From Blattamonas nauphoetae (Eukaryota > Preaxostyla > Oxymonadida): a stretch of DNA of 64,000 nt. Made by a program: the position numbers and the translations under genes. Positions 13,956 to 40,000 of this stretch are shown here, one piece after another; within the stretch, counting starts at the first letter, position 1; every line of letters starts with the position of its first letter. The stretch lies in NCBI GenBank assembly GCA_033064195.1, contig JARBJD010000301.1:25695-89694 (forward strand), written 5' to 3'. Under the pieces are notes generated by a model, which saw nothing but the letters and a program-made list of their open reading frames with translations, searched no databases and was not told where the DNA came from.

Positions 13956-15945
13956 TCACTCTCCACTTCCACTTAATTTAGTGTACAAACGCATCGATAA
14001 CGATTTGATGCTGGCAGAAGTGCCAACTTGAGGGTGGTTCGACATTTTCTGTTCGAGAACATCTTCAATGCCATGCCTTCGCAGCACTCTTGAGAGATCT
14101 TTCGATCCGGGGTGACATTTTTGGGTATGCCCTTGTGAGAGTGATATAGATCTGTCGAGCCTGTCTAGAATCATATGTTCAAAGTGATCGAACTCCAAAT
14201 ACAAGAGAATCGAAATTAATCCTTGTGGGACGGCAGATGTGGCAAGAGATCGCATTGTGGGAGGATGATGGACAGCTATTTCGAACAGATGAATGATGAC
14301 ATCCTTTTCGATTATTCGAAATGTCAAGAACGAGATTGGGATGACATTGCGAAAGATGTGGCTCACAAATTGACTGCAGGGAACAATAACATTGCTACAA
14401 ATCGTTTCTTGAATTTTTGGGACTGATTCCGGGACACGAAGCTCGTGCAGTTTGCGTATTCCAGATTGTGTTCCACATTGAACGGCACAGTGCCATATTG
14501 ACAACAACGAGAAGAAGAGGTCAAAGCTACCTTGAATTGGCAAAATGTGGGGCATGGGTTCGGCACGTATGGCAAAGTTCGGAATGTATGTCTTTTTTGT
14601 TTTTCAAGCTGCGTAGAAGAGTCCAAAATGCCAAAATTCCACTTTAGAGTGAACAGGGCCCCGATGCATTAGATGATGGAATTTCAACATCCATTGATTT
14701 GTATTCAGAGAAAGAAAGTACAAACCAGGCTGATCCAAGTTTGTCATTTTTTTTGAATATATGATTCGATGTTGACACCCAACGTCAAGTTATCACATCT
14801 AAATGATCCATAAAAGAAGAATCTGGATGAAATGAATGGATATCGTGATGGGGAAGAAAAAATTGTGACAATTGTGCGGAGAGTGATGATCTGACTTTTC
14901 TGTCTCATTTCAGCTCCTATTCATCCAATATTTCTGAAACACCATTAAAATAGATTTTTGAGGGCGATACAATATGATAAAACGTGATGTGCAACCTACT
15001 CGAGAAAGAATCCCATTCCTTTTTTCTTTTAAGAATCTGCCATCGTTACTTCATAAATCTCAAATTTCTACCGAATTAACCACTCATTGATCTCTTATTA
15101 ATCAGATTTTCATAATTTGAACAACAAAGATGACCACAAACAAAAAGGAGGGGAATCTTCAAAGTCAATGATGTGGCCCAGATCGGGGTTTCCACTCACT
15201 TTGAACACCTTTAACATGGTCATTCTGTACCAATCCGTTCGATTAGTTCACATTCACATCACATTCATTGATTTATCTCTCCTTTTTTGAGAAAAGTGTG
15301 ATTAAATCAACGGATCAATGGGAAAAAACGAAAAAAGTCGACTTGACACTCTTCCCGACACTTGGTCAGTCGTTGGACACTCGTGCCATACATACCGAAC
15401 CTTGCCATACATACCGAACTTATGCCATACAAACCGAACTTTACCATACATACCGAACCCATGCCAAATGTGGGATTTGAGTGAAGTCATCAGTTGACCG
15501 ATGTAACCTTTTTTGAGGAAGGAGAACTGGTCAACTGAAGGAGCACTGATATACCAGTCAGTGAAGAGATGGAAGGCGGTTCTTGCGATATCCGCGGATG
15601 GACAGCCCATAAGCATCCGTAAATGGGGCACAAATAAGATGAGCTTGTTTTCGTCGTGGGGGAACAGCCGAACATGGAGATTAGATGTAATCTTGAGTTG
15701 ATAAGAGCGGAGGAATTCCAAAAATTTGACTGCTTTCTGTTGTTGTGTCTTGTTTAACACACGGCCATCCTTCATCATTGTGACAAGTGACTGCATAATC
15801 GGCGTGAATTCTTCGATTGATTTTGGTTTCTGTTCGTCCCAATCCAAGAAAGGTTTGTAAACTGTTGATTAATGAAGCAAAACTAAAATAGAATGTACTA
15901 CGGACTTTTACGAAGATGATCGGATTTCGACTGTGAAGATCCCAT
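13956..15945 (-). CDS. helical-repeat family, subtype B, copy B2, split by a transposon
   Basis: The gene starts at ATG 15945 (MGSSQSKSDHLRK), has a short GT...AG intron, and resumes at about 15870 with YKPFLDWDEQKPKS. It runs to GYIGQLMTSLKSHI at 15466, where the 915-bp element begins. The coding sequence resumes at 14550 and ends at 13956. Deleting the element and one TSD copy gives ...TSLKSHILPIQGS... in frame, matching the paralogue GQLMHLLQLHTRPVEG. The C-terminal half carries IAVHHPPTMRSLA and LRRHGIEDVLEQ, the subtype's signature. The N-terminus MGxxxS fits an N-myristoylation signal (also in B4). Function is unknown; helical repeats are likely. Confidence 0.7.
14543..14550. repeat. 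8-bp target-site duplication AAATGTGG (left)
   Basis: Repeated at 15466-15473. Confidence 0.85.
14551..15465. mobile_element. 915-bp MITE-like element with arrayed-repeat termini
   Basis: The ends are GGCATGGGTTCGGCACGTAT and, in reverse complement, GGCATGGGTTCGGTATGTAT. Each terminus is an array of about 20-bp direct units (GTTCGGTATGTATGGYAAR type): four on the right (15385-15465), about two on the left (14551-14590). The TSD is 8 bp. I see no coding sequence inside. The element at 28467 has the same GGCATGGGT start and the same design with a different unit, so they are probably related families mobilised by one kind of transposase. Confidence 0.85.
15466..15473. repeat. 8-bp target-site duplication AAATGTGG (right)
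   Basis: Matches 14543-14550. Confidence 0.85.
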
Positions 15946-16028
15946 TTAAATTCAAAGGTATTCTGTCAATCGCGGAGATCCAACCCATAACGAGTGTGTT
16001 CACATCGTTTCGTCTTTCAAGCAAAATA

Positions 16029-16782
16029 ATGAGCCAACCAGGCCAATTTATTCTTCAAGATCGCCCCTACTACAAACCCAAGAAGAATGTGGTCTTGAAA
16101 AGTCTGCTACCTGCCATTAAGCTTTCTTTCCTCACAAACGCCAACTCCTTTGCTCAATCATCCTGGCCATCGTTGGAAGTGCGATGACAATTGCAGGCAT
16201 CATCTTTATGGTCCTTGTCACGGAACCTTTCATTGTGGGAATTGTCTCTTCTCTTTCTTTGTCACCATCTTTCTCACCACAGGCGTTAATCATCTTCGGA
16301 GTATTTTTTGGACTCGCGTTTCAAGTATCTCTCTTCTGTTTTCGGTTCTTCACTCCATTCTGCAGTGTGCTGCCTGTCGTTTTGCTGTCGTTTACACGAT
16401 GGAGCTGGACTGTCAAAACGATCGATTTTTTTTGGATGTAGGTGGAAACTGTTGTGCGACGATATGCTCGAATCTCAGTCGTCATGATGAAATCCCACTT
16501 GAAGACATTTATGGTCTCTTTGTGGCTGGATGGAAGACCATGGCGACACCCAAAATCAGATCTGACGCCTTCGATGCCAACGGTGATTATCACCCCATTC
16601 CCGACCTCCCAAAGAAGCCAACATATCTTGTTCGAGTCGTCTACGGCCAACCAATCGTATTCTTCATCCGTCACATCACCATATTCATCCTTTCCATCTT
16701 TCCTTTCAGCCTCAACGACTCCAAGCTTATAGGGGGTGAACTAATTCTGTCCCCGCAGGTTTTCTCTGTATCGAAGGTGTGA
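16029..16782 (+). CDS. small membrane protein, intron-containing
   Basis: ATG 16029 opens MSQPGQFILQDRPYYKPKKN. An intron or frame junction follows. The next exon, from about 16158, encodes a transmembrane segment (IILAIVGSAMTIAGIIFMV). A GT...AG intron (about 16230-16284) then joins PFI to ALIIFGVFFGLAFQ, a second transmembrane segment. A further intron ending at about 16364 leads to a soluble domain of about 100 residues (VVYTMELDCQNDRFFLD, DIYGLFVAGWKTMATPK, ANGDYHPIPDLP). The frame closes at 16782. Two membrane helices and a C-terminal soluble domain are what can be seen; I do not recognise the family. The splice near 16090-16150 is uncertain. Confidence 0.55.
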
Positions 16783-18333
16783 CCAGCACTGATTTTTTCA
16801 TCAATGTCTTACACATAGCCAATTCATGTTTATGTCAGAATTTTCTATTTTTTGTGCTATAGATCTCTCAATTCAGACATTTCTGATTGTGATTTACGAA
16901 TATTTTCTTCTGTGTGAAACTTCGACAGAAATACATTAACTATAGGAGTTCTTTTCAACTCTTTTCTCGTGATGTGCTCTAAAAAATGCACATAAAGAGC
17001 TCCATTCACGGTGGTCGTGGAAAAAAGAAAAGTCGATCTCTTTTCGTTCGAAGGTTGGTATAGCGTGGTCGATCATAAATATCACGTAGGAGGCCTTCTT
17101 ATAATCTGAAAAAGTCCTGAAATAAGAAAATGAGACTTGAATCGAAGCCACTGTCAAGATCCACGACAATGGGGATGAAAACTCTAACCACGGTAGAAAT
17201 TTCAATCTTCCATTGAAACGTGTATTTCTTCACTATTATCCAGAAATGAAAACTGATTTTGATAAAAGAAAATCGCAATACCTTTTCCTGAGGATCGAAA
17301 GAGATAGTGAACGAGAGGACATATGATTTCATTGAAATCGATTGTCTACAAAAAAATTGTCAAATTCTATGCATTTTGAGAGCAATTATTTGAATAATGA
17401 TGAGGATAGACATCTAGGAATCTGTCCTGTCATCCATTGCATGGATCCTCCATTTGACTTTAATAGGATTGATCTTCGTTCGTTATTCACAAATTCGAGT
17501 TTTTTGAATCTCGATGAATCCGTTTGATCAACATTCTTTCCTGGAAAAGTGAGAATTGAAAGAGAATTGTCTGTCTGAGATCTCATTTTTCCTGAAAGTA
17601 TCGAATTAAGTCGTAATGATGTAAAATGAAAACAATAATCGATGTACCGACTATGTGTAAGCTTTATACTTGTATTGTTTGTTGCATCCCTTCCCTACAT
17701 ATTGAGAAAGTTGGAGGGGACATAATTAGTTCACCCCCTATATCCTCAGTCGCAATATCCTCCACAACAAGTCCATCAGCCACCAGACACACTTCCCAGT
17801 GATGGTGCTCACTCTTTCCCGGCTGAACTGCCTGCAGACCCTGGTATCAGTGATGAGAAGAGAATATCATGACGGAAATATTTTCCACTTTTTTTTCTTG
17901 GATCGCTTCAAACGATCCATCTTTATTTTTGGCAACGATGATCCTCTCCAAATATGTATTCTGAGAGATGATTGCTCTGTTTGTATCAAAGAAAGATCAA
18001 TGGCGAGAACGAGGTGAAACGAGATTCAAGAATCTTGTGCTGTGATTGAGAGTTGAGATAAGCAGCGTCGTCGGGATAAAATGGAAAAAGACTCGAACAC
18101 GATGAGAACGATACAGTCAACATTAAAAGTGAAGCAAAGACGATAATCTGGAAAATAATTGGAGAAAAATGTGAGCATCATTGAAGTCAAGGGAATAAGT
18201 GGCCCAGATAGACAATTGAGATCGATCGATACGTGAGAAGCGATTTCCATCGTCTATCTTGGATAATAAAATAGAATATAGTGCGGATCAGAAATCATCA
18301 GAAATGAACATCCCTCTGCCCCACCGCTGACCA
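16783..18333. other. 1.5 kb without a recognisable gene
   Basis: Only short, AT-rich frames on both strands. Nothing resembles a transposon end, RNA gene or family member. Confidence 0.5.
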
Positions 18334-21300
18334 ATGAAAACATCCGAATTGACACCTTTTCAACAATTGTGATCGGTTTTCACTTTTTCATCTTTCATTC
18401 ATCCCAATAGCTCCTCCATCTTCGCCACAAAACCAATCGACCGCTGGTTCTCTCTCTTCAGACATCTCGATGTTCTCCAAGTTCTTTCTACGCATCTTTC
18501 GAATTCTCACACACCGACATCGATTACTTCTCCCTCTTGATCCAAAACATGAAGATATTGTCTTCGCCCACATCATGGTTACCCTCGTCGAACATTTCGT
18601 AGCTTCTGGAGATCTCATCCTCCCAGACTCGTCTCCAACCGATCTCTTACCAGTTTTTACAGAGTTTTTTCGCACATTTTTCAAGAAAAGAAATCGTAAA
18701 TCAAATCCCTTTCTCATCCACAATCTCGCCTCGTCGTTCGCACAAGTTGTTCTTCGCCGCGATATTCGGAACATTTTTCGTTTTTCAGATCACTCATTCC
18801 TGCGCGGTGATGCTGTTGAATCTTCGGAACAGTTGTTGGATGCTGTGAAGAAGGTGAAAGAAACTCTCTCGCTGGAGAAGGTTCAAACTGCATTTTTTGA
18901 TTGGAAAGAATGGGTGAAAATGCTGGAGACAATCGAGAAAGATGCCACACAGACAGTTTGTCTTCATTTACTGTTCATTGTTTCCTTCAGACTGATCATT
19001 CCATCCTCCAATCTCGCTGTCTCCGAGCCACACTCCTCTCTCTCCAAAAAAAGCATCAACTCCGAGCCAACCCAACTCAAAATGAAAAGAACAGATTCGC
19101 AGACTCTTGTCGCCTTCCAACAACAACAACAACTGACACTCCACTCATCTCCTCAGCCATCAATCCCTTCACCAACCTCCCAATCTACCTTCCACTTTCC
19201 ATCGATCCCAGGTCATCCTCGACGGACACTTCACTTCACTCCTCCACCATCAATCCCTTCACCAACCTCCCAATCTACCTTCCACCTTCCATCGATCCCA
19301 GGCCATCCTCGACGGACAATTCACTTCACTCCTCCACCATCTCCACCCAAACAGCACTCCCATCTTCTCAGTTCTCTTCCGATCCGCAGCCATTCATTTT
19401 TGAGCAGGCCATATTCCAGACAAACCCAGTCGTTCGTCAGTCTCGACAGTTCCTCTTAGCGATCCATTATCTCCTCACTCGACCACTTCCCACTTCCTTC
19501 CCGTGGATCATCCGTCCGTCATTCAAATCGGAATCAGAACAGGATACTGATTTCCAACCGGATCATCAATCAGTCGATCTCAACGAGAAGTTTCACACAT
19601 CGCTGTTCGACGACACAGATGATGCGAAAGTGGTGGCAGCACTCCGTCGGTGTTGTGCTGTTGTCAAAGCGACGCAAACCACAAAATGCATTGCGAACGT
19701 CAACACTTTCCGAAACTTCCTCATCGCTGGTCTCCACTCGTCCAATCCCGTCATCCAGTACGAATGTCACAATCTCTTCTTTGAAATCAGTTACTTCTTT
19801 CCGAAATTCGATGACCCTCGTCAAAGTCGATTTTCCAGTCTCCGAATGGCATTCCGCGACGGAACATTTTGGGAGAAGATGACACTGTTATGGCTGTGGT
19901 TTCGATGGTTGCAGTTCCGAGCCAAGAATGGGGATCAAAGGTATGTGAACGAGTCGGATTTCGATTTCAGCGGATTTCTGGCGACTGATCTGAGCGATGT
20001 CCGTCTCTTCTACCTGGCCTGCAACTTCGTCGGGGCAATCTTGTTGGATAAAGCAGTATCGATGTCCATTGAATGGCAAATGGACTTCGTTCATCAATTT
20101 GAGAGGAGGAATCGGATGCTGTCGCGCATCTCGAGCGATCCGATGTTGTTTTCAAAACAGGACCAATCGGCTCTTTATCTGACTCCACTCGCAACCATGC
20201 TCGGCTCGTTCTTGTCTGTCTATTGTGGCTGTGATTTCCCTCCCGCTCTGACCGACATCGTCGCAACTGATTCAGACCCAACTCTACACAGAATGTTGTC
20301 AAATTTTGTGAATCCCATATTCTTCCTCAGTCATTCCTCCATCGATCCCAAACACCGACGCTCCTTCTTCCCGATGGATCTGATGTTCGAAAGGTTTCTC
20401 CGATCAGATCCAGACACGCTCGTCAAAGGATGGATTAATGTGTCTGAATGCACTTCGAGAAAATTCCTCTTCACTCCTTATGTTGGTCTGCACTCTCTCC
20501 TTCTTCGCTCTCCCAAACTCAATCTCGATCTACAGGCACTTCTAATTCTCGTCGTCATGTTCTTCATCAAACTCTCAGGTCAGGAATCCACTCAATCGGA
20601 CATTTCCCAACTCTTCTGTTTTTTTCTCCTCCTCGCCTCTTCGACACTCTCCTCTCATCGCCACTCCTCGTCAGAGCCAATAGAATCATATGGATCGAGT
20701 TTCTCTATCTCTTCAACATCTTAGGGAGTGATCTCGCTGCCTTCGGTGCGTGCTCGTCCCTCGCCAAAGTGTTTAAGATGCTGTATCCGTTCGATTCTAA
20801 TCCGGAGCAAGCCGAGCTGTCCTTCTTGTCGGATGTTGGGAATCAGGTTGTGTCTCTTCACTGGCTCAATTTTCCTTCTCACATCGACTCTCCACTCCTC
20901 TGCCATCTTCCTTCTCTGGCTGGTGCTCAGCGAGGCATCCTCCAAACTCTCTCCTCTCACTCTGGCATCCCCTCTCTCCTCCCTCTGCGCAACCAACCCG
21001 ACTGGAACAGCATCAGCACAATGATATCAAAAGGAATGTCTCCCAACGAAGCAATCCGCGTTCTGTCTCAATGTGTGCGATATTTTGCTTCTCTCGGTTT
21101 GGCCTCACAATTGTCATTCTTTCTCAGATTTCTATTCTCCCCCAACAGGACCATATCTCCTCATGAGCATCTTCAGGAATCTCCTGTTTGTTCTCCCTCA
21201 TTCCTTTCTTCCTCTTTTCAGATCTCCACTTCCCGGAGACACGTCGATTGCCATCGAGTTCTTCCTTCGACTCGTCAGTGTCACGTCTGATGATGTTCGG

Positions 21301-23069
21301 ATGAAATTGGTGATAGTTCCCCGACCAAGCCGGACTTGTTCATCAAGTCGGACAAAGGGTAGGTATGTCAAGGATACCTCCTTATTTGACTGTAAAGTTG
21401 ATTGATAATCGCTTTACGGCTTCAACAAAGAGTTTGAGAACGATCAGACCATTCATTGTATTTGTTCACTTCCCTCATCCATTTTTGCTATTCTCACACA
21501 ATAGCCAATCGAGCAAAGAGGTGAAGTGATTAAATAACATTTGGAACTATTTAGATGTATGTTCAGTTCATCCCCCCATCGAGGATGAGAATGGATCCAT
21601 CGAAGAAGAAGTTGACGACGGAGAGTTTTGTGGGTGCCAATTGATTGTTTTCAGCCTCTCGCAACCAATTGAAGCGGATTCAGACGACTTGTATCATTTT
21701 TGCTTGGAATGGAGAATGTGAATGAGATTCTGTTTGCCTCATCTCGGATCTACTGTGAAAAAAGTGAGGAAACCTTAAAATTGCAATCATAAGGCAGTTT
21801 GAGGAACACACCATCATTCCAAGATCCAAGTAGTTGGGATGAATGCCATTGGAGATCTTGTTGAGCATGCCATTCCGGAAGTGAACAGATTCCATCTTAT
21901 TGAGAGGAATGAGAGATACAAACATCCAAAGACCTTTATCCTGCAGAAAGGTCGTCGGATGCGTGATTCTTGCGGGTCGGAGAAGACCTTCGTAGAATGA
22001 AAACAAGAACATTTTCAACCTCAAAATTGGTCTGTCAAGGTGCACATTATGAATATAGCGTGGAGACACATCACTAACATCAATGCTGATGTGAGTTTAG
22101 ACCTCCGAGAACTGTGATGCATGTCCATTCAGGTTCGGATTTGAAAAAGCACCCATTGATCGTGTCTTTCTTCTCAGAAATACCAATTTTTACTCAACAC
22201 TCGCATATCGAAATGAAGAAATTATCATGCAACTAGAAAGTATTGTTGTCCTACCTGATGAACAAGTCCGGCCTAATCGGAGGACTATGAGGAAGGGTTT
22301 GTTGGACCGTGTGGTGTTTGCTGTGTCATGCTCGTCGTTCTTGGATGACTACGAGAAAGGGGTTGCTGTGATTGGGATTCTTCTCGACACAATCCGACGA
22401 GACAATTTGAAGCAGAGAACAACTTGTCACAGAATCCAGAAAGAAGGTCGAAGAGGAACGAAAGGACGAAGAGTTCCGAGGGCGAACACTGATGTCGGAA
22501 GCAAACCGACGAGCACAGGAACGCTCAGAAGCAGTGCGAAAGCGGAAGAAGACGATTCGACAGTTGGAAGACTGGAAGTGGTCGGGAAGACAGAGGAGAT
22601 GGGGCTGGTGAGCTCGTATGGAGTCGAGGCAGTCGGATCGGTGGGATCGGGGCAGCGTGTTGTGAGCTCGCACGAGGAGCGGCGGACTGGCCGATCGAGC
22701 AACGGAGAAGAGCCGTTCAGCGAGGAGCCGAAGTTGACAGTGAAGATTGCTCGGCAGATGAGAGCGGAGATGGACGAGGCAGTTGCAATTAGACAGCGGA
22801 AGTTGGAGATGATGAGGATCATGCAGTGGAAAGTGGGAGACCCGCTTCCGTTTGAGCTGATGACGGAACGGGATAAGAAGGAGTCGATTCGGAAGAAGGC
22901 GGAAGCGGAGGAGAGGGCTCGGAAGCTGGAGATGTCGGCGCTGTTGGAGAGCACTGGTCCGCTTGCGTCGCCTCCGACGGGGAGTCATGGTGAGGTTCAA
23001 AGTTCAGCGGGAGGAGAGGGACAGACAGGGGAAGGGAGTCGGGAAGAGACCGAAGAGTCATCGGCTTGA
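18334..23069 (+). CDS. helical-repeat family, subtype C, copy C1 (about 1,200 aa), interrupted by a 974-bp element
   Basis: A tentative start is ATG 18334, followed by an intron ending at 18408. A supported intron is 18956-18990 (35 nt), joining EKDATQT to TDHSILQSRCLRA. The protein has a Ser/Thr/Pro-rich section with a 31-residue repeat (INPFTNLPIYLP twice), then long helical sequence (for example FEISYFFPKFDD, LFYLACNFVGAILLDKA). Two more introns lie near 20577-20680 and 21120-21225. The exon ...EFFLRLVSVTSDDVRMKLV is broken at 21313 by the element and resumes at 22291 as RKGLLDRVVFAVS, exactly in frame. A Glu/Lys/Arg-rich C-terminal region follows, with unresolved exon borders, to TGA 23069. 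It is HEAT/ARM-like; function unknown. Confidence 0.6.
19153..19342. repeat. two tandem copies of a 93-bp coding repeat
   Basis: The block beginning gccatcaatcccttcacc recurs 93 bases later with few changes. It encodes INPFTNLPIYLPxSIDPRxS twice within the Ser/Pro-rich part of the C1 gene. Confidence 0.85.
21311..21313. repeat. 3-bp target-site duplication TGA (left)
   Basis: Repeated at 22288-22290. The coding frame across the junction supports one TGA in the original gene. Confidence 0.75.
21314..22287. mobile_element. 974-bp TIR element, copy 1 (3-bp TSD)
   Basis: It begins TAGTTCCCCGACCAAGCCGG and ends with the reverse complement of TAGTCCTCCGATTAGGCCGG; the inverted similarity continues through ACTTGTTCATCA (about 34 bp). 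It is the same length as 38659-39632, and every line I compared is identical, including a 129-codon frame on the minus strand (22069-21680) whose product I do not recognise. The 3-bp TNA-type duplication fits PIF/Harbinger- or CACTA-like elements. No transposase with recognisable motifs is present. It interrupts a coding exon of C1. Confidence 0.9.
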
Positions 23070-23308
23070 TTGGGGTGAGTGTCTTTCTGTTTTTGTTTTT
23101 GTTTGAGGGTGGGAGTGAAGGAAAGGGTGATGGTGTTGATTGTCGGTCAATCGTTTTCAATCTCATTTCTTCAGTTTTGATTCATGATGACTTGACAAAC
23201 AAAAGGGGGTGTTGATGAAGTGGAGTGATTATCGAGAAGACGAGCCATTCGATCCCAATCGATTGCACAGCCACAACGATATATCTGTTTCTCCTCCACT
23301 CCAGTCTC

Positions 23309-24237
23309 TCATCGTTCCCTTGTCCCTTGACGCATTTTCCCATCATCAGGACTCCAAAGTGTTGCGGAATCATTGAATTGTCTCAGATGCTTGGAAATAT
23401 GATACTCGAGGGAGTGGTGGACGAGAATGTCGGTGACAGATTGTGGAAGTGAAGACGAGCGAAGATATTGGATTGTGGGAGGATGATGGACAGCTATTTC
23501 GAACAGATGAATGTCGATATGGGAATGGATAAGGCATCTTGAGAACAACGGAGTTTGGTTTGTGAGATGTAAGAGATGTTCCAAATATTGGCTGGATGGA
23601 ACGATCACATTGTTCAAAATTGTTGCTCGAATGTCATCGTACGATTCCTTCACATCGCAATCGTTGAGTTTGTCCATCCAATACGGGATTCCACATTTCA
23701 TGGCTTCGTCCAAAAATGAAACCATTGAAAGATGAAATTTTGCGTTCCCTTCAACAGGACGAGTGTGCAGTTGGAGTAAATGCATCAGTTGACCGATCCG
23801 ACTTTCCTTGATGAACGAATACCTGACGTCGAATGGTGAAGCGATGAACCATTTTCGGAGAAGCGAGAATCCTGCTTTTGCTATATTCCAGCATGGACAC
23901 CCCAAAATGATAAACATACGATCCACAAAAATTTGGTTTTTGTCATCGTCGTGTGGAAATAGACACGAAGGGAGTTGTGATGTGTCAGAGCTGGAATGGC
24001 TCAGCAGACCCAACAATTTGACGACTTTAAATTGCTGCTCATCGTCAAAAACATAGCCCTCTTCAAGCATTTGGACCAGAGAATTGAAGATCTGTGGATA
24101 TTGTTCATAACTCTTGGGGTACTTTCTATTCCAATCCAAGAAAGGAGTGGAAGCTGCATATTCAAGAAGCAACATTTAATCAAAAGGTGAGACGAACCTT
24201 CAGGAGGATGATTTGTTGTGGACTGTGAAGAGTCCAT
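23309..24237 (-). CDS. helical-repeat family, subtype B, copy B3 (shortened C-terminus)
   Basis: Exon 1 is 24237-24198 (MDSSQSTTNHPPE) and the intron 24197-24155/4 (GTTCG...TGCAG). Exon 2, from 24153, reads ASTPFLDWNRKYPKS and is open to 23309. It contains VRYSFIKESRIGQLMHLLQ, VIVPSSQYLEHLLHL and IAVHHPPTIQYLRSSSLPQS, aligning along its length with B2 and B4. The usual L-SEG-ED C-terminal motif is missing; the last 20 residues are unrelated, so the 3' end has been replaced or frame-shifted. Ser/Asp replaces Gly at position 2, so unlike B2 and B4 it lacks the myristoylation signal. Confidence 0.65.
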
Positions 24238-24426
24238 CGTGTTCAAGATGTGATCAAACCACTTCATGAGATTTCTCAGGTGGAATGACGATTGAACAAA
24301 CAATATTCATTCTGTGGGATTCAATATGACGAGAAAAAGCTGAAGTGAAACAAAATTCCGTCCAGAGAGGCAGCAATCACGTGACGGAGAGGCAGAAGAG
24401 GGATAATCCCGAGCGTGGCAGATCTG

Positions 24427-28466: not shown

Positions 28467-29043
28467 GGCATGGGTCCAGTGTGTCTGGCGAAGTCCATTG
28501 TGTCTGGCGGTGGTCCAATAAGTCTGGCGGTGGTCCAGTGTGTGTGGTGGTGATATGTCCCCAATATTCGATCATCTGAGGATTGGAACATACAAAATCG
28601 ATCTATTTCCTTCTTGTCATCTCTTTTCCCTAAAATAGCGAGAGGTGAAACAGTCAATGGAGGATAAGCTATTCAAAAAAGTGAGGCTCTTATCAGAAAT
28701 CCTGGATACCTATCACTTCACAGGACATGAAGGTTCTCTATTTTTTGAAAATAGTCAGTTTTGCACAATATTTCGTCAAAAACACATAATTTTACAAAAA
28801 ATACATCCATAGAGTGAAAAAAGTGCTTTTTATTTTGATCAACCTTGATCGGATGAATGGAAACTTTTCATGCCTTTTTTTCGGTTTTGTCACTTCTACA
28901 CCTTCTCTGGGGATCTCATCATGACCACAGATGAACACGATATTGTGACACCTTCCATATTTCTTCAGAAATCCACCGCCAGACACATTGAACCCGTTGA
29001 GCCAGACACATTTCAAAACCACCAGACACAATGAACCCATGCC
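28467..29043. mobile_element. 577-bp MITE-like element with arrayed-repeat termini
   Basis: The ends are GGCATGGGTCCAGTGTGTCT and, in reverse complement, GGCATGGGTTCATTGTGTCT. The left terminus holds four direct units of about 20 bp (GTCCANTGTGTCTGGCGGTG type, 28473-28552), the right about three. It is flanked by GGGAAAGC on both sides and has no coding content. The layout matches 14551-15465 with a different unit sequence. It sits between copies A1 and A2, apparently not in an exon. Confidence 0.85.
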
Positions 29044-29051
29044 GGGAAAGC
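29044..29051. repeat. 8-bp target-site duplication GGGAAAGC (right)
   Basis: Matches 28459-28466. Confidence 0.85.
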
Positions 29052-29085
29052 TATGATCACAACAAAAGAGATTGGAGATTACATT

Positions 29086-32000
29086 TTAGTGTTTCGGGAT
29101 ATAAACATTCGATCCCAGCAATTTTGACATTGAAAATGCATCTTCAACAATCTCGCCACCATAAACTATCACACGGTTGTTCATCAGTATCTGTTCGAGA
29201 GTGTCATCGAAGCCTTCTGAAACCAGAGCTTGGATCATCCGTTTCACATATTGTTCCGCTTCGTCACCGGAATACTTCCACTCTTTCAGCAAGGAATGCA
29301 GTTCATCGAGTGTGGACCGATTTTGACAATGATCTTCGATTAGCGAGAGGCCGCTTGAGAATGCCAAAGAAATCGTAGAGGCAATGACAAGATTAAAAGT
29401 TGGGAGATGAAATGGACCTATTCGAAGGAGTGTGCACAAGAAAGTTATGAACGAGTGTAGCAAGTCTTCACTGAGGACGAGCCGTTTTGAGATCAGAAAG
29501 TTCAAAAATGGAGACGATGGCAGAACGACTTTCTGAAAGATCATTTCGCGATAGGGGAATGCGTCTGTGGCAGAAATGCCCAAACATCTGAAGAGATTTA
29601 ATCGAAATGCGATGGTGATGAGGGAGTTGATGGCGGTTAAGTATAGGCGCAGATCCGATTTTCGCTACGCGCAGATCCATTTTTTTGGATACGCGCAGAT
29701 CCAAATGGATACACGCAGATCCAAAAGGATCGTTGATTAATTATTGCTAACCAGATCCAATTCATGTTTTTTTGCTGGAATTGCTCACAATTCATTCATA
29801 CTCTTCCAAACTTTTCGTAAATCTGAATTGTATCAAGTCATAAAAAGAGAATGTTGATCAAACCATCAGACCTATTTCGATTGAGGTTTGCCCCCCTTAG
29901 TATGACTCGATATTGGGAAGTTAGGCTTTCCATTTCTCACACCGACAGTTTTCTTCCTCTTCCTGCACGTGGGTTACGTCTCAGGCCGTTCCGTGTCTCA
30001 TCCTGATTACTATCCTTTTCCTCTTCAACATCAGCTCTGCTTCTGAAAATATTCACAACGATCAACGCTCTTCTCTTCCCTTCTACCGCTTTCGCATCAT
30101 CAACACACATTTCTTCATCCAAATCGTCATCATCTCTCGAATGAAGAAACGACGATTTTTCTTGCTCTCGCTGGCATCAATTGCTGTATATTATTGTTCC
30201 TCGCATTAAATTTCACATATTTTTTCGATATCTCTCTCCATACAACAGTCAAATTCTGTATATCCATCACAACCACCACGATCTTCATGAGAATCCAATT
30301 TAGCGTTTAATGGGTGATATCCGTCTGAAATGATCAACAAGTGATCCAGCTAACCAGTATCTTAGTATCATTCTGACAGCTTCCCCGATACATCGCGATC
30401 GTGCTAGTTCTCATGACACTCGTCAAGATTTCGTTCTGATATTGGCGTTTGGTTCCTCATTTCCGTGAAAATGAAACACCAGCATCATCTGCTCCAATTA
30501 GTATCACGTTGCTCACTCATAAATCAAAAACTGCGGAAGAAATGATGATCCTCCCTCCATCATCGTTCCGTGCTCTCCATCCGGTGTATACCCGCCTATT
30601 GTCATAAATCCGACGACCATCCCAATTAGTGGAGATAACTAGCTAAATGAACAATCCCCTTCATCGTCAGAGGAACAAGAGAATTCAAACTCTCTCTTTC
30701 TCACTCCGCGAGTCTCACCGCCTCAACAACTCGCTCCAATCATCATTCCACTCACTTCAAACACCCCACATCTTGCTCCTGTCCTGGCATCGTCATCTTC
30801 GCAACCAGCCGCGCCAAAATACCTGTAGGAGCAGATGGGTCCCAAATTACCAAAACACACCAGTCCAAACCAAATGATGGAGGCGATCAGGTTCATGACC
30901 TAAAAAAAAGCTGGGGAAGACGAAGGAGGAGCCTGTGTCATCCCCATCCACGTCAGAGGAAACACGATCACTCCTGTCCATACTTCGGAGCTCGTCGACG
31001 AGCTCATCAACCCTCCGATGACCCAGACCAGTCGCGGAAGGTCGATGGAGGCAGTCGTCGCCCCCTCCGCGAAGGATCTGTCGTCTGGGCAGGTGAAGGT
31101 GCTGAAGCGGAAGGCGATGGCAAAGACCAACCTTGTTCAGCCATCGAACAGAAAGAGGTTCGCGCTCAACTCAACCCCAACGAAATCTCGCTCATCTCAA
31201 TCGGGACAATGCACAGAACTTCACCATCGCAGCTGACATCATCCCCATCTCACTCGAACTCCCTGTCAACGAAGTCTTCCTCTCCTTCTCTTCCTCCAAC
31301 ATCAGTCGCTGTGTGGGCGAAACATTCAACATCACCAATCCTGGAAACCACCCAGCCAACTTCCACTGGGAAATGGACCAGACTGCTCTCCTCGGCAACT
31401 CCTCCACAGAAGCGCGAGTGGTGCAGCTCCCGCCAGCCAGCGTCATCATGCACGGCTCGTACATCAAAGAGGGCGAGGGCATCCAGACAGACTTTCTGGT
31501 CCATGTTCCTCTCGAGACCATCCTCGCCGAGCAGACGACCATCCCACTTCAAGCCGCCTGACATTCAGTCGAGAACCTCCGCATCATCGGCGAGGTTTCT
31601 GAGGGCAGAGCGGAATTTGTAGAGAAGCAGATCGAGTCGAATGTCTGCTTCTTTGTCGAGAAGACAGATCCCTCCCTCTCTGTCGTTCCTCTCACAGGAC
31701 CCATCCCGATCGGAGGGCAGATTCTCCTCGCTGTCACCATCAACTCGTCTAGCAGAGCGTCTCCGTTGTTGCTGAAGCGCTCGAGCCAAACGTGGAGATT
31801 GGAGAGCCGCGATCAGGCCAATTCTGAAACCTCTCGAACAGTTCAATCCACCACTCCATTCTTTTGAATCTGTATGATCCAATAGAAGCCGCTATACTGT
31901 CAACTTGTTCGCCGCCAATGCCGAAGGCAAAAACACTCCGTAACACTTGTTCTTTGTCACTGTATTCGGGAATATTAGCATTATCATGGATCACAACCAG

Positions 32001-32827
32001 AAATTTCAATATTTCATCCAGAGCAGTATCTTCAAATCGCAATTTGCGACAGGCATTGTTTTGGAATCACCTTGCTCAATTTATCAACTTTTTTCAATCG
32101 ATTTGTTATTCTGAAAGATGTGAGAGAGAAAATCAGTCCATATTGAAGTTTTCTGAGACTGTAACCAACCATAAATTCGAAAAGAAACAACAAAAGTTTA
32201 GATCTGCGTGTATCCATTTGGATCTGCGTGTATCCGATTTTTTGGATCTGCGCGTAGCGAAAATCGGATCTGCGCCTATACTTAACCGTTGATGGCTCTG
32301 ATGATGCAGTCGATTATCTGTTCATGTCCAACAACAGGAAGTGTGTAAGGTTGAATAACTGCGAAGACCTGCGTGACGAGATCAGATTCCACAAGTTGAA
32401 GTCGAATGTATGGAGATGCTTTCGAGACAGATTCGCAGAGAAGTGACACCGTCGCCACAACCACGGTTGTGTGGGGAGACAACAGGAGAGTGAAAATGCT
32501 CTCAATGAAACCAGAAGACGACCTGTCTGAAGAGGGAACGAGGTCAATGAGAGGCTTGTCCGCAAGTTCTTGGTCGCCCCATTGCGGTTCGATGCTCTTC
32601 AAAAACTGTGCAGCTTTGTCTTGAAGGGCATCGTCAAAAGGATATTCATCTTTCACCAGGGAAACCAGCGAACGGTAGATCCTCGATTCATCTTCAAACG
32701 ACAAGACTGTGTTGAGATCGAAATTCAGGAATGATTCTTGCAAGTTGTTGACTGTTGAAGGTGATTCCGGATAATCATGTAATGAAGTATCGTTTGTGGA
32801 GTTCAAGGATAGAATTGTTTTTTGCAT
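29086..32827 (-). CDS. helical-repeat family, subtype A, copy A2, split by a 2.65-kb element
   Basis: The N-terminal half (32827-32288) runs from MQKTILSLNSTND to IIDCIIRAIN. The C-terminal half (29634-29086) runs from SLITIAFRLNLFRCLG through REMIFQKVVLPSSPFLNFLI to LVSEGFDDTLEQILM and SKLLGSNV. Removing the element and one 9-bp TSD joins the halves in frame with no other lesion in about 360 codons. The inserted copy is therefore either very young or still expressed in some way. Same family and unknown role as copy A5. Confidence 0.75.
29626..29634. repeat. 9-bp target-site duplication GTTGATGGC (left)
   Basis: Repeated at 32288-32296. Confidence 0.9.
29635..32287. mobile_element. Mutator-like (Pack-MULE-type) element with about 95-bp TIRs
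   Basis: Both ends read GGTTAAGTATAGGCGCAGAT inwards, and the inverted similarity continues for about 95 bp. The termini contain four copies of a CGCAGATCC motif at 20-24 bp spacing. The 9-bp TSD and long TIR are typical of Mutator-like elements. No transposase is visible in 2.65 kb. The interior carries a degraded piece of an ASH/MSP-type protein gene (31190-31870), that is, captured host DNA. Confidence 0.85.
31190..31870 (+). pseudogene. captured fragment of an ASH/MSP-domain (flagellar-type) protein
   Basis: The plus strand encodes NFTIAADIIPISLELPVNEV, FLSFSSSNISRCVGE and TFNITNPGNHPANFHWEMD. This is the beta-sandwich pattern of ASH/MSP-like domains in flagellar proteins such as the CFAP65/HYDIN group. 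After a TGA at 31560-31562 the same frame continues with VENLRIIGEVSEGRAEF and PIPIGGQILLAVTINSS, a second similar unit. A frame change near 31200 separates it from upstream coding-looking sequence. It is a non-functional piece inside the Mutator-like element; the exact parent gene cannot be named by eye. Confidence 0.6.
32288..32296. repeat. 9-bp target-site duplication GTTGATGGC (right)
   Basis: Matches 29626-29634. Confidence 0.9.
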
Positions 32828-32877
32828 TGAGGTTGATAAGGATCATCCCATTGTTCTTCGTTCATTCATCTTCGATC

Positions 32878-33476
32878 CATGAAAACGTCCAATCGAACAA
32901 TACAACCGCTTTATCCTCCCTCTTGATCCAGATCAGAAAGATATTGTCTTCACATGCATCATGGTTGCCCTTGTCAAACATTTCGTGGCTTCTGGAGATC
33001 TCATTCTCAGGAGCCTTGGTATCACCGCTGCAGTGGACATAAACAACCATCGTGAAATGATCTTTCAGAAAGTCGTTATTCCATCGTCTCAATTTCTGAG
33101 ATTTCTGATCTCAAATCGGCGCGTCCTCAATGGCGACTTGCTTGACTCTTTCATGCAACTTTTGGTTAAACTCCTTCGAATAAGCCCGTATCATCTCCCA
33201 ACATTGGAATTTATTGTCGCATCTCCAATTGTGATGGCATTCTCAAGATGTTTCTCAATCGTCGAATCCCGTCTTCAACTCTGGACGCCTCTCAACAACA
33301 TTGTCCATTTGCAGTCCCAATGGAAGAAGGAATGCCGCGAAGTGGTCCAATCTGGGAAACAGACGGTCCCAGCTCTAGATCCGGAAGGCTTCGAGAGCTC
33401 TATTGAACAGACGCTGATGTGCAACAAGGACGTGTCTTCAGGCAGAAATCTGGTCAGATGCTGTTCCTCCATCTAA
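32878..33476 (+). pseudogene. chimera: subtype C fragment joined to 3' part of subtype A (copy A3)
   Basis: The first about 130 bp (RFILPLDPDQKDIVF, IMVALVKHFVASGDLIL) closely match C1 at 18515-18630 (LLPLDPKHEDIVF, IMVTLVEHFVASGDLIL). At about 33010 the frame passes without a break into subtype A sequence (SLGITAAVDINNHREMIFQKV, FLRFLISNRRVLNGDLL) and on to a diverged C-terminus at 33476. It lacks the N-terminal half of either gene, so it is probably a recombination product and not a full gene. The in-frame junction is notable. Confidence 0.6.
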
Positions 33477-34524
33477 CTACTCCTGGGATCGAACATTACC
33501 GAACAGTGTTCGGTTTCATCCCAAAAGACGCATCGAAACAAACTCTCTCGAATCACTCCACACTCACTTCTGCGGACTCTCCTCGGATGCTGGGAATGAT
33601 GTGATTGCTGGTGCCGTCTAAAAGTTGCTGAGATCGCCTCCAACCGTCCAGATATGGTTTGCTCTTTTGGGTTCGTCATTCTCAACGCTACAGTCTTTTG
33701 CAATCGTTTTGTCGACGTAGCAATCTCCAGACAAGTTCTGGCGTTACTGAACGGTGCAAGGTGGGCAGACTATCTTTTCCAATCTCGACTTTTGGACCAA
33801 CACAGAAACACATCTCGCATTTCTCGTCAAAATGGGGTGCACCACACATTCACGTCTTGCCGCAGCCATCGACGATTTATCTGAGGCGTGATCTGATTTT
33901 GTGGGAATGTTCTCTTTGTACGAACTGGTTCATTCATGACGACGAATCGTCGATCATCAATTCCAACAGAATCAGAAGGGTTTGTCTTCCGAAATTGTCA
34001 TTCTCTGATGTTCAGCTGTTCTTTGATGGAACACGATCGAATTGGTCTGCACATGATGTGCTCTTCGGTCACGATTTCTGGGATTTCTGAACACGAATCG
34101 TATCTCGTTGATCTTGGCGGCATCACCCTTGAATAAAACACTCCCGCCCTTCAATTGTTTCCATATGTCTTTTTCTGGACATGAATGTGGTTTTTTTATC
34201 TTCGCTGTGAACGAGAATCGTCGTCTCTCATCTTCCGTCCATCCGATCCTGAGCTCTTCACTATCCACCATTCTGAATGACGGGATTCACCTGCGTTCGG
34301 ACTTGCCTTTTAACAATGGACTGTCGCATGCATGCAGATCCAGAGAGAGATAATCTCACCGAACGTGGAACATGCCAGACAGGAATATCCTCGTTGTGAA
34401 TAAGTTGCTTTGTCATTATTCTCTTCATTTTGATAACATTTCCGTGAACTGTTTATGAATTGAACCCATTTAAGGCGAGCTTGTCTGAAAGAAAGAAAGA
34501 TGGGATGATCATTCTCTCTTTTCA
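33477..34524. repeat. subtype A 3' flank plus unassigned sequence
   Basis: 33480-33660 resembles the sequence just downstream of the other subtype A genes (36120-36280 in the same orientation; 50400-50520 and 55480-55620 inverted), for example caaactctctcgaatcac and gggaatg..tgattgctggtgcc. The duplicated unit therefore extends beyond the coding region. A minus-strand frame at 34271-33972 (99 codons, hydrophilic, ATG start) could be a small gene but has no other support. Confidence 0.5.
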
Positions 34525-36127
34525 ATGAACCCGGCATGTGTTGCTTTTTCCACAAAAATTGATGCATGTTTGACTGACTCACCGGAATCACCTTCAACAG
34601 TGGACAAATTGCATGGACCTTTCCTGAATTTCGTTCCGAACTCCGAATTGTCATTCGAAGAGATATCAGCCGTGTACTGTTCGCTGGTTGTCCTTGTGAA
34701 AGGGAAGCATCCATTTGACAATGCCCTTCAAGACAGAGCAGCACAATTTTTGAAGAGCATCGAACCTGGATTCGGCGACCAAGATCAGGCCACAAGACTC
34801 ATCAACAGGCATCTGAGTAGTCCCATCAAAATAGGTAAAACTGGGATCAATTGATGTCAGTGCCTAAATTTGGACTGAGATCAAATTTCAACTCTTTTCC
34901 TTTGAGATTTTCTCATTATCACTTCATTAATCATGTTCAATTCACTTCTTGTTTTCACATAATGCTCTTCAATATTTCAGACAGCTCTTATTTCCCAAAA
35001 ACACGCACGATCACAATCACCAACACTTCTTTTTTCGATGTATTCCCTTCATTGACTTTAGTCAGTGAGAAAAAACCATCAAAGAAGACATAATAACGCA
35101 TTATCGACTTGTTTTTATAATTATTGTTGTAGAACAAACTGAAACAGCAGCACCCAAAGTTTGCATTTTCATGATCTATGAAGTGACCATTTTCCTTTTT
35201 ACTTTTTTTTCCATTCAAATATCATATATAAGAAGACTTTTTTGAAATGAAAGAAACGAAATGGTATTGTAGGTATTTAGTGGGATCAGATCCGACTGGG
35301 ATCACTGGGATCAAATCAGAAGCCTGCTCATCAATGACCTCGTTCCCTCTTCAGCTGGATCGCCTTCTGGGTTTGTTCAGAGCATTCTCACTCTGCTGTC
35401 ATCTCCCCACTCGACAGTTGTTGCAGGAGTTTTATCGTTTCTCTCGGAAATAACAAGTTGGTCAACAACGAGAATTCGTCATCGTCTGGTGGACTCTGAT
35501 CTCGTCACAAATGTCTTAGCGACTGTTCAACCTCAAACACCGCCAATTTTGGGAAATGCAACGATCATCTCCAAACTCATCGAAATCATCCGCGACTCTC
35601 TCCGCCTCGCACTTCCATCATTTATCAGCAAACTTGCGATCACGACTGCAATAGAAAAATACAACCATCGTGAAATGATCTTTCAGAAGGTCGTGCTCCC
35701 ATCGTCTCCGTTTGTGACATTTCTGATCTCAAATCGGCACCTCCTCAATGGAGACTTATTCACGTCCTTCATGGTTCTATTGCTCAGATTCATTGAAATC
35801 GGCCCGTTTCATCGCCCAACATTGGATTTTGTCCTCGCCTCTCCAATTGTGATGGCATACTCAAATTGTCTCTCGATCGTCGAAGATGATCATGTTCTCT
35901 GGGTATTGTTCAGCAACCTCGACAATTCTCTGACAGAATGGAAGAAGGAAGGCACAGAAGAGGTCCAATCAGCAAAACGGAACATCCAAGCTCTGTTTTC
36001 GGAAGGCTTCCAGGACACACTCGAACAGATGGAGCAACTCGCTAAGGATGGAACTTTTGACACCAGAATTGCTGTCGATTGTACCTCCATCTCGCGACTT
36101 CTGGGATCGAACGTGAAGAGAATGTGA
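34525..36127 (+). CDS. helical-repeat family, subtype A, copy A4, split by a 521-bp element
   Basis: ATG 34525 opens MNPACVAFSTKIDA, and the frame runs through SELSFEEISAVYCSLVVLVK and NALQDRAAQFLKSIEP to QATRLIN at 34805. After the element it continues as DLVPSSAGSPSGFVQSILTL through HREMIFQKVVLPSSPFVTFL to LFSEGFQDTLEQMEQ and RLLGSNVKRM, TGA 36127. Deleting the insert and one CTCATCAA restores the frame exactly. Apart from the insertion it is intact and full length (about 360 aa). Confidence 0.75.
34798..34805. repeat. 8-bp target-site duplication CTCATCAA (left)
   Basis: Repeated at 35327-35334. Confidence 0.85.
34806..35326. mobile_element. 521-bp hAT-type MITE
   Basis: The ends are CAGGCATCTGAGT and, in reverse complement, CAGGCTTCTGATT. 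The TSD is CTCATCAA. The CAGGC end and 8-bp TSD are hAT-like. GGGATCA-type motifs repeat near the right end (35281-35312). The interior is AT-rich and non-coding. Confidence 0.8.
35327..35334. repeat. 8-bp target-site duplication CTCATCAA (right)
   Basis: Matches 34798-34805. Confidence 0.85.
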
Positions 36128-37070
36128 TTCGATGGATCGCAAAAGACGCGTCGACGCAAACTCTCTCGAATCACTGCAACTCTTCTCAACACACTTTCCT
36201 CCGATGTTGGGAATGCTCTGATTGCTGGTGCCGACGAACAGATTCTGCGATTCCCTCTAACAATCCAGAAATGGTTTCCCATTTTGACCTCTTCATTCTA
36301 TACGCAGCAGTCTTTTACTGTCATTTTTTCGACGTTACACTCTCCAAACAATTCTTCCCGTCCCTGTACGCGACATGGTGATCAGGTTATCTCTCCCAAT
36401 CTCCACTTTTGAAACTTAGCCGAAGCACATCTGGCTTTTCTCGTCTCAATGGAATGTACCCCACATTGCTGCCATTCCACAGCCATCTGCAATTTGTCTG
36501 ATGTGTGCTCTGACCTTTTTGTTTGTTTCTCCTGGTTGTATCAGCACTTAACTCTGTTTTGATCTCTCTTCATCTTCCTCCTCTTTGATATCATCTCCTC
36601 GTATTTTTTTCGTTCTCACAACCGCAAAAACCAAATATGAAGTTTCAATCGTCCGAACGCGCTCACCAGCGAACTTTTCGAACACTTTCACCGAAGTCTT
36701 GATTTCACTGTTTTGTCTGAAAATACTCGAAATAATGCAGACTCGAGTTCCTTAACTGCTTCGCAATATAGAAGAGGATCTGTACGACAAATAATCTCGA
36801 ACCTTTGAAGGGAGGAATCACCGAATCCAAGCTGAGAGATTGGATTGTCAAATGAACAAGAATTCTGAACTCAAAACAAATATAAGACCCAGTGATAACA
36901 AATATCTGAACTGGGCACAATGATTCAAGTCAATAATTGTATTTTCGAACACACGAAAGTCTGTCTGATGTGATCGAACCAAAGGAAAAATAGTCTCGGG
37001 GAGGACTCACAACACAGCCTTCTATCGACACACAAAACATCTATTCATCTATTCCTTGCTCTGAAATACC
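36128..37070. other. subtype A 3' flank, then intergenic
   Basis: 36130-36300 is the conserved downstream flank shared with the other subtype A copies. The remaining 750 bp show no gene, RNA or repeat that I recognise. Confidence 0.5.
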
Positions 37071-40000
37071 ATGTCATTCGACAACCATTCAACTCCTCCA
37101 CAAATTGACAACGCCAAAGCCGAACAAACAGTTTGACGACTTTGTCTCGACTTCATTTTCAAATACTTCCAGCTCTTTCTTGAAATGATTATACGCCGGA
37201 TAAGTGGCGACTGCATATCACTGCGTCCTGTGATGCTGAATGCCCTCCTCGTTCTGGTGAAGGGTTTGATTCGACCTGATTTCCTTCCATCTCGTTGATT
37301 CTGTTCACAGAGGATGATTGGAACCGTTCTGCCATCCGAGGAATGAACTACTTACAAGCCGTTGAGCGATATTGTGAGATGACGTCAGGAGATGCGGTTC
37401 CAGTCTGGTTCTTGTTCTGTCACACTTTCAGAGGACTCTCCCAGAATTGTTGTGTGTGCTTGGTGTGATTTGCATTTTCACGTTCTAGTGTTATTTGTTG
37501 TGATTTCTTCAATCAGGGAGATCATCAGAAGATGAATTGGATCGCATCTGCCAATCGACGATTCCCTCCTTCCTTCTCGAATCGATGCTCGTCACAAAGA
37601 ACACCACTATGATCACTGAAGTCTGTCCTCCTCCACATTTCCATCATTTTGTCTCAGATCGGATATTGTCTTCTGTTGATGACATCCACTCTTCGCTCGT
37701 CTTCCACCTTCCTCGCCCACCACAAACCCAAATATGTCGCCTTTGTTGGTCATTGTGCGAGAACTCTGCCAATGTGTCGATATGTAACAATTGAATACAA
37801 ACTGGATTCCTTCCCACATCTCCCAATTCTCTCCCATCTCTGCTTCTCCCCACATCCCCAAATCTCCGCGCTTCCGCTCAACGTGCTCTTCCGATCCAGT
37901 GATGTGTATGAGACTCGTGAATTCCTCCAAAAACTCAATGTTCCGTCTGTCTCGACTGAATGGTGGTCCAAGTCAGTTCCATTTGCCGAACAATTGTGTG
38001 GAAAGCTGGCCGAACATGTTTCACAAATGAAGTCACATTTCACAGAATCCGCACCTGACGATCCAACCATCTCTTCTCTCTCCCCCACCCTCCCCGAAGA
38101 ATCCCCACTTCTCTTCAGAAACGCTGTGTTGGAAATGCTTTGCGAAGGATTCTCGCTCGTCTCGAGTCTGCTCGTCGGCTCGAACCACATCTTTTTTTAA
38201 GTCTGTCTTTGTCTCCTCTCACCTTCCCCAGATTCTTCTCGATAACAACCTTGCTCCTCTTCTGAAATCAACCATCATCGCCTGCCTCGATCTACTTGAT
38301 TTCACCAACACTGAACCAAATGGTGCTCCTCCTGGTCAAACGGACCTGCTGGTCAAGATCATCGATTGGTCATGGAAATCAACAACGAAATGTCTCTACA
38401 CTGTCTACAAAGAACCCCAGCAAGTTTTCGCAAACACTTTCTCCGATGTTTCGGAGCTGTGCTCTCTTTTGGTGCGGACATGCCGCCACTCGTTGCCAGC
38501 ATGTCCCGCTCATCTCGAAATGATCGACATCATCCGTTCAGAACTCCCCGACATGTTCCCTCGCTTGCTGGAGGAGGATCTGGTCCACCGAGTGATCAAT
38601 GCATCACAACCGACAACAGTTCCAACAACCCACAAACAATTTCACATCAATCTCATCATAGTTCCCCGACCAAGCCGGACTTGTTCATCAAGTCGGACAA
38701 AGGGTAGGTATGTCAAGGATACCTCCTTATTTGACTGTAAAGTTGATTGATAATCGCTTTACGGCTTCAACAAAGAGTTTGAGAACGATCAGACCATTCA
38801 TTGTATTTGTTCACTTCCCTCATCCATTTTTGCTATTCTCACACAATAGCCAATCGAGCAAAGAGGTGAAGTGATTAAATAACATTTGGAACTATTTAGA
38901 TGTATGTTCAGTTCATCCCCCCATCGAGGATGAGAATGGATCCATCGAAGAAGAAGTTGACGACGGAGAGTTTTGTGGGTGCCAATTGATTGTTTTCAGC
39001 CTCTCGCAACCAATTGAAGCGGATTCAGACGACTTGTATCATTTTTGCTTGGAATGGAGAATGTGAATGAGATTCTGTTTGCCTCATCTCGGATCTACTG
39101 TGAAAAAAGTGAGGAAACCTTAAAATTGCAATCATAAGGCAGTTTGAGGAACACACCATCATTCCAAGATCCAAGTAGTTGGGATGAATGCCATTGGAGA
39201 TCTTGTTGAGCATGCCATTCCGGAAGTGAACAGATTCCATCTTATTGAGAGGAATGAGAGATACAAACATCCAAAGACCTTTATCCTGCAGAAAGGTCGT
39301 CGGATGCGTGATTCTTGCGGGTCGGAGAAGACCTTCGTAGAATGAAAACAAGAACATTTTCAACCTCAAAATTGGTCTGTCAAGGTGCACATTATGAATA
39401 TAGCGTGGAGACACATCACTAACATCAATGCTGATGTGAGTTTAGACCTCCGAGAACTGTGATGCATGTCCATTCAGGTTCGGATTTGAAAAAGCACCCA
39501 TTGATCGTGTCTTTCTTCTCAGAAATACCAATTTTTACTCAACACTCGCATATCGAAATGAAGAAATTATCATGCAACTAGAAAGTATTGTTGTCCTACC
39601 TGATGAACAAGTCCGGCCTAATCGGAGGACTATAAGAGAGACAAATGCATCGAAAATCAGGAAGAGGAGTGGAACAGAGTCCGAAAACTTCAGTTTCATC
39701 GAGTGTTGAAGCCAGCCCAACAATATCTTCTGTTCTTTGTTCAGCGAGAAGAGTTCTGTGCCTACGTTCCTCCTTATCACAAACCGGATATCATCAGAAG
39801 TGACAATCTCATCTGGTACACAATTTGGCTCGAGAAAGATCTGTTCACATCTGGTGAGATTGTGGAGACAGGAAGAGAGGAGTGGGGGAGAGATTAGAGA
39901 GGATCGGAGAGGACGATGAGAAAATGAAGAAGGATGAGAAGTCGAGATGGAAGAAGAGAGTTGAGAGACGACGAGAAGCAGGACACGAAGATGCGATGGA

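What the first reader, a model, noticed from the sequence alone, without database searches (positions are those of the whole stretch)
14551..39632. Five transposons sit inside coding exons of one gene family, and removing element + one TSD restores each reading frame
Elements at 14551, 21314, 29635, 34806 and 38659 belong to at least three superfamilies (8-, 9- and 3-bp TSDs). Each interrupts an exon of a helical-repeat gene, and the host sequence on both sides rejoins in frame with no other lesion. Either all insertions are very recent in a redundant family, or the organism removes them (precise somatic excision or splicing-like removal from RNA). I checked for simple GT...AG removal at the 21314 element and it would shift the frame, so ordinary splicing at the edges does not explain it. 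Since most of the window is coding, target preference is not shown.
Basis: partly seen in the sequence, partly recalled or inferred. Interest (0 to 1): 0.85.

Follow-up and report, generated by a model that had tools for sequence, protein, structure and literature searches.

The report
Young transposons inside redundant protist genes
Five recently moved DNA transposons sit inside genes of a gut protist, four of them cleanly, and this looks like a fresh wave of insertions into gene families with many spare copies rather than a hidden system that cuts them out.

Summary
The window is from the oxymonad Blattamonas nauphoetae. E1-E4 are bounded DNA transposons with perfect 8-, 3-, 9- and 8-bp target duplications; removing element plus one duplication rejoins the host frame, checked against uninterrupted paralogues. 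E5 fails: flanking triplets differ (TCA/TAA), about 20 bp present in both paralogues examined is missing, and the homologous frame is not restored. The hosts are three families, not one. Exact GT/GC-AG splicing is impossible for E1-E4. Nothing supports somatic excision. A small lead remains: the E2/E5 element has an internal splice-like pair that would leave 54 in-frame codons in one of six insertion configurations.

The parts
14551..15465 (.). E1: 915-bp non-autonomous TIR element (TIR GGCATGGGTTCGG, sub-terminal repeats), inside a minus-strand family gene; TSD AAATGTGG at 14543-14550 and 15466-15473
   Evidence: four further copies 99-100% identical and diverged subfamilies
13959..15868 (-). 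host gene of E1 (ORF halves 15305-15868 and 13959-14550), member of the helical-repeat-like family
   Evidence: 329-aa joined frame; aligns through the junction to the ORF at 23312-24175
21314..22287 (+). E2: 974-bp element TAGTTCCCC...GGACTA, TSD TGA (21311-21313, 22288-22290); internal splice-like sites AG|GTATGT 49 nt from the left end and TTCTCAG| 110 nt from the right end
18353..23069 (+). approximate extent of the host gene of E2 (exon boundaries not determined), a different multi-copy family from that of E1/E3/E4
   Evidence: paralogues continuous across the junction
29635..32287 (.). E3: 2,653-bp MULE-like element, TIRs of about 92 bp made of repeated GGATCTGCG(C/T)GTA units, TSD GTTGATGGC (29626-29634, 32288-32296), carrying a captured-looking coding fragment (about 31106-31558 +)
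29089..32842 (-). host gene of E3 (halves 32297-32842 and 29089-29634)
   Evidence: 364-aa joined frame, 124 of 128 homologue rows span the junction
34806..35326 (.). E4: 521-bp hAT-like MITE (TIR CAGGCWTCTGA), TSD CTCATCAA (34798-34805, 35327-35334)
34489..36127 (+). host gene of E4, same family; GenBank model BLNAU_20695 treats E4 as an intron
   Evidence: (369-aa joined frame, 125 of 129 rows span)
38659..39632 (+). E5: 974 bp; its 970-bp core is identical to that of E2; flanks TCA / TAA do not match
38031..39895 (+). host gene of E5, a third large family; about 20 bp lost at the junction relative to paralogues, frames do not meet
50522..51610 (-). uninterrupted paralogue of the E1/E3/E4 host family, used as reference

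Best explanation
These are ordinary cut-and-paste-type, non-autonomous DNA transposons of several superfamilies (a MULE-like element, a hAT-like MITE, a TNA-target element in two identical copies, and an 8-bp-TSD TIR element) that inserted very recently in Blattamonas nauphoetae. Transposases encoded elsewhere in the genome are presumed to move them (inferred; such genes are present). They land in coding and non-coding sequence alike. The interrupted genes belong to large paralogous families, so breaking one copy costs little, and too little time has passed for further lesions to build up; that is why removing the element plus one duplication still gives an open frame. Shown: element borders, TSDs, recency, open empty-site frames for E1-E4, paralogues, near-identical empty sites, lack of bias. 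Inferred: loss of function of the hit copies, movement in trans, absence of removal.
For: E2/E5 family: 31 full-length matches; the 30 examined are 967-970 of 970 identical apart from single-base indels, and 29 of 30 have matching TNA TSDs. E4 family: 41 full-length matches at 99-100% from the 40 scored of 421 first-look candidates; 20 of the 40 other copies fetched, all with perfect 8-bp TSDs. E1 family: 18 of 20 full copies with 8/8 TSDs, mostly in tight subfamilies. Coding fraction of insertions 36 of 70 against 0.513 for random flank sites (p=1.0) and 0.446-0.542 for window sites. Orientation 20 of 34 sense (p=0.39), all six strand/phase configurations seen (2 of the 36 coding sites, L006 and L063, left out). 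Uninterrupted relatives span the junction for 14 of 24 distinct sites, in 3 of them at 96-100%; two such loci overlap the occupied flanks by exactly 8 bp and 3 bp, the TSDs. hAT, MULE and DDE_Tnp_4 transposase matches in the genome: 61, 100, 62.
Against: No RNA, reads or population data. For 10 of 24 sites no uninterrupted relative was seen, though only 40 candidates per query were scored, so those hosts may be single-copy. No depletion from coding sequence is odd unless insertions are extremely young or harmless. Older, isolated E1-family copies are in coding frames in 2 of 7 cases against 6 of 13 for young ones, too few to show purging. The E2 element does have a splice-like pair that would spare its window host. 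No autonomous partner was tied to E2, E4 or E1 by shared termini.
Confidence: 0.87

Rival explanations
1. Splicing rescue: some of these elements act as proto-introns (Introner-like). In the E2/E5 family the internal pair AG|GTATGT and TTCTTCTCAG| would remove most of the element and leave 162 nt (54 codons), a multiple of three, open when the element lies sense in one phase, as E2 does in the window.
For: The pair exists and rescues the frame in E2, L007, L018 and L026. Pairs with these properties occur in 3 of 500 shuffles of E2 and 1 of 500 of E1 on the gene strand. Introners that carry both splice sites and leave extra codons are described (PMC9860276, passages seen). GenBank model BLNAU_20695 splices across E4.
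Against: Criteria were set after seeing E2. Only 4 of 16 coding E2-family hosts are in the rescued configuration (p=0.27); others meet stops or are antisense. The E1 pair leaves a stop in its window host. E3 and E4 have no qualifying pair. The E4 model's splice leaves an out-of-frame remainder patched by further introns, which looks like a predictor artefact. E5 is not rescued.
Confidence: 0.08
2. Programmed precise DNA excision, as with ciliate internal eliminated sequences.
For: Removal of element plus one TSD would restore E1-E4; near-identical empty loci exist for a few sites.
Against: The empty loci lie on other contigs and differ by substitutions, so they are other copies, not excision products. 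E5 would not be restored. Several unrelated superfamilies with different ends would need precise excision. About half of the insertions are outside coding-like frames. No nuclear dimorphism is known to me in oxymonads (recalled).
Confidence: 0.02
3. The hosts are already dead or dying family members, so the insertions fell in neutral sequence.
For: E5's host has a further lesion; partial or frame-broken family copies lie nearby (33476-34087, 55226-56121).
Against: E1, E3 and E4 hosts are otherwise open over 329-369 aa, so they were intact until recently.
Confidence: 0.03

Closest known systems
hAT MITEs (E4)
   Same: 8-bp TSDs in 20 of 20 copies, short CAGG TIRs, T at position 2 in 16 of 21 and A at position 7 in 15 of 21 target sites (the hAT motif nTnnnnAn is recalled); hAT dimerisation-domain matches in the genome
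   Different: no autonomous copy with the same termini identified; central S-AT-S motif in the target (AT in 21 of 21) is stricter than recalled for hAT
Pack-MULEs (E3)
   Same: 9-bp TSD, long TIRs of repeated units, captured-looking coding fragment, MULE transposase loci present, one (L091) with related repeats
   Different: capture source not traced; similarity of the fragment to CFAP47 chains is weak (E 0.046)
PIF/Harbinger-type MITEs (E2/E5)
   Same: 3-bp target ending and starting in T-N-A, TIRs, DDE_Tnp_4 matches in the genome
   Different: TNA rather than the recalled TWA; no transposase linked by termini
Introners (PMC9860276, passages seen)
   Same: many near-identical non-autonomous TIR/TSD elements inside genes
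   Different: no exact splice borders, no orientation or phase bias
Ciliate internal eliminated sequences (recalled)
   Same: transposon-like inserts in exons with short direct repeats
   Different: no sign of a processed genome; E5 not restorable

Membership tests
Introner | removal as a spliceosomal intron at or near the element borders | tested here: not met
   no GT/GC-AG at any TSD offset for E1-E4; frame-sparing internal pair only in E2 (its E1 counterpart leaves a stop in the window host). Actual splicing not testable here
Introner | orientation bias towards the coding strand (expected from one-strand splice sites; inference) | tested here: not met
   20 of 34 sense, p=0.39
Internal eliminated sequence | element absent from the expressed genome | not testable with these tools
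   no reads or second nuclear genome held
Internal eliminated sequence | precise excision restores every interrupted frame | tested here: not met
   E5
hAT MITE (E4) | 8-bp TSD | tested here: met
   20 of 20 copies plus the window copy
hAT MITE (E4) | termini shared with a hAT transposase-bearing element | tested here: inconclusive
   4 of 61 hAT loci checked in 3-kb stretches, no convincing TIR match
MULE (E3) | 9-bp TSD and long TIRs | tested here: met
MULE (E3) | termini shared with a MULE transposase-bearing element | tested here: inconclusive
   1 of the 2 MULE loci fetched has related repeats, 70-79% identity
PIF/Harbinger (E2/E5) | 3-bp TSD | tested here: met
   29 of 30 TNA pairs match
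PIF/Harbinger (E2/E5) | termini shared with a DDE_Tnp_4-bearing element | not tested
   62 DDE_Tnp_4 matches, but loci could not be cut out

The most novel reading that the evidence does not exclude
B. nauphoetae is at the start of an intron-gain episode: one of its bursting transposon families (E2/E5) already carries a usable splice pair that leaves an in-frame, stop-free remainder in one insertion configuration, so some coding insertions are tolerated by splicing rather than by redundancy.
Probability: 0.08. Interest if true: 0.6.

Novelty: new member of a known kind. Interest (0 to 1): 0.27.

Why it matters
It shows a multi-superfamily burst of non-autonomous DNA transposons so recent that coding insertions are not yet depleted, in an amitochondriate protist whose transposons are little described in the papers I could search. 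It warns that gene models there can turn insertions into false introns (BLNAU_20695), and it offers a natural set of identical insertions in all orientations and phases in which splicing tolerance could be measured.

Tried and rejected
Exact splicing by co-opting the TSD: rejected for E1-E4. A fixed internal splice pair as the general explanation: rejected by phase and orientation spread and by the E1 host phase. Tc1/mariner (TA) reading of E2: dropped because flanks are TNA on both sides. Autonomous partner of E2 at C335: 6 kb fetched, no convincing one found. Old versus young E1 copies in coding sequence: too few. Pfam on 62 of the 66 flank pieces of 33 interrupted genes gave five families, none a housekeeping enzyme: PK_Tyr_Ser-Thr and Pkinase (3 members each), TMEM154 (2), TM_ErbB1 (1), DUF6377 (1). 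My E3 join was off by one and was redone.
Full report
Source. The window lies on a contig of an 88.3-Mb, 837-contig genome. Homologues of a long ORF are named Blattamonas nauphoetae in all 120 rows listed of 203, and the model BLNAU_20695 lies on a contig of the window contig's length, 89,694 bases. The published assembly is 88.5 Mb in 879 contigs with 25,221 predicted genes (PMC10703272; listing and passages seen).

The elements. E1 (915 bp), E2 (974 bp), E3 (2,653 bp) and E4 (521 bp) have inverted termini and perfect TSDs of 8, 3, 9 and 8 bp. The 970-bp cores of E2 and E5 are identical. E2/E5 has 31 full-length matches in the genome; the 30 fetched differ from E2 by 0-3 positions. The flanking pattern is TNA|TAGTTCC...GGACTA|TNA, and 29 of 30 pairs match; E5 is the exception. 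E4 gave 41 full-length matches at 99-100% with 40 of 421 candidates scored; 20 fetched copies are 519-521 of 521 identical with 20 of 20 TSDs. E1 has four other copies at 99-100% and diverged subfamilies at 71-89%, many with close sisters. E3 has one near-full-length relative at 96%, several at 97-99% in two or more pieces, and relatives sharing the ends but not the middle, as expected of MULE-like elements that carry foreign segments. Its inner ORF has weak similarity to CFAP47 chains (E 0.046).

The empty sites. E1, E3 and E4 interrupt members of one family: each half aligns to neighbouring parts of uninterrupted members, and the joined frames are open over 329, 364 and 369 aa, with homologues running through the junction. 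E2 interrupts another family in frame. E5 interrupts a third: paralogues L082 and L083 match its left flank at 75% and 65% and its right flank at 74% and 64%, but carry 7 more codons between them. The E5 gene has lost about 20 bp there and its two sides are out of frame. A deletion at insertion or recombination between two nearby copies would explain this; I did not separate the two.

Recency and redundancy. Two searches with joined 140-base host flanks covered 24 distinct sites (15, 12, three shared). Uninterrupted relatives span the junction at 14: E2, E4, L007, L024, L026, L078, L079 and L015, L019, L020, L021, L047, L055, L070. At L021, L047 and L070 they are 96-100% identical. The empty locus on C242 matches the L047 flanks at 531 of 533 and 391 of 391 bases, overlapping by exactly the 8-bp TSD; the one on C369 matches L021 at 354 of 356 and 60 of 60, overlapping by exactly 3 bp, though it also differs by a further indel of some 66 bp. 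For the other 10 sites nothing was seen, with only 40 of 553 and 40 of 181 candidates scored.

No bias. With a codon-periodic score trained on 56 long ORFs, 36 of 70 insertions lie in an open, coding-like frame once the element is removed (E2 17 of 30, E4 11 of 20, E1 8 of 20), against 51% of random flank sites, 54% of random window sites and 45% of TNA window sites. Leaving out L006 (E5) and L063, 20 of 34 are sense (p=0.39) and all six strand/phase configurations occur. This is what recent, unselected insertion predicts.

Removal hypotheses. Looking inside the elements, E2 has AG|GTATGT 49 nt from its left end and TTTCTTCTCAG| 110 nt from its right end; joining them leaves 162 nt including a TSD, open only in sense phase 1. 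That spares E2's own host and three others, 4 of 16 coding hosts, as expected by chance (p=0.27). Such pairs are rare in shuffles (3 of 500 for E2; 1 of 500 for E1 on the gene strand), but I set the criteria after seeing E2, and the E1 pair leaves a stop in its host's phase. E3 and E4 have none. The GenBank model of the E4 host does splice E4 out, from AATAG|GTAAAA to TTTAG|TGGG, but the remainder is out of frame and is followed by further introns that return to the family frame. The paper says Augustus was used with RNA-seq intron hints, so RNA support cannot be ruled out, but patching by the predictor is the simpler reading.

Verdict. A partly confirmed observation with an ordinary best explanation. 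The interest lies in how fresh and broad the burst is, and in the E2 splice pair as a testable lead.

Noticed in passing
window 16730-17740: A sixth TIR element (TATAGGGGGTGAACTAATT...) with coding-like host sequence on both sides; removal with a TA duplication leaves two open frames.
   Followed up: partly
window 53907-55004: A seventh TIR element with E2-like termini (CCGGACTTG) and matching TTA/TTA flanks, not in an open frame.
   Followed up: partly
window 34489-36127: GenBank model BLNAU_20695 treats transposon E4 as an intron and adds further introns to regain frame: a likely annotation artefact.
   Followed up: yes
window 31106-31558: Coding-like fragment inside E3 with weak similarity to cilia protein CFAP47: possible gene capture.
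   Followed up: partly
window 44570-47464: 965-aa minus-strand ORF with an LCAT domain (E 6.5e-15), which contains overlapping plus-strand ORFs of up to 296 aa.
   Followed up: no
L008 and L018 (contig C66, 58801-61494): Two E2-family copies in inverted orientation less than 2 kb apart, each with its own matching TSD.
   Followed up: no
L038 and L040 (contig C237): Two E1-family copies with the same TSD on one contig, 97.7% identical: a segmental duplication after insertion is likely; the L040 host frame has a stop.
   Followed up: no
E4 target sites (L061-L080): Strong target motif: AT at positions 4-5 in 21 of 21 sites and C or G at position 6 in 21 of 21, stricter than expected for hAT (recalled).
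   Followed up: partly
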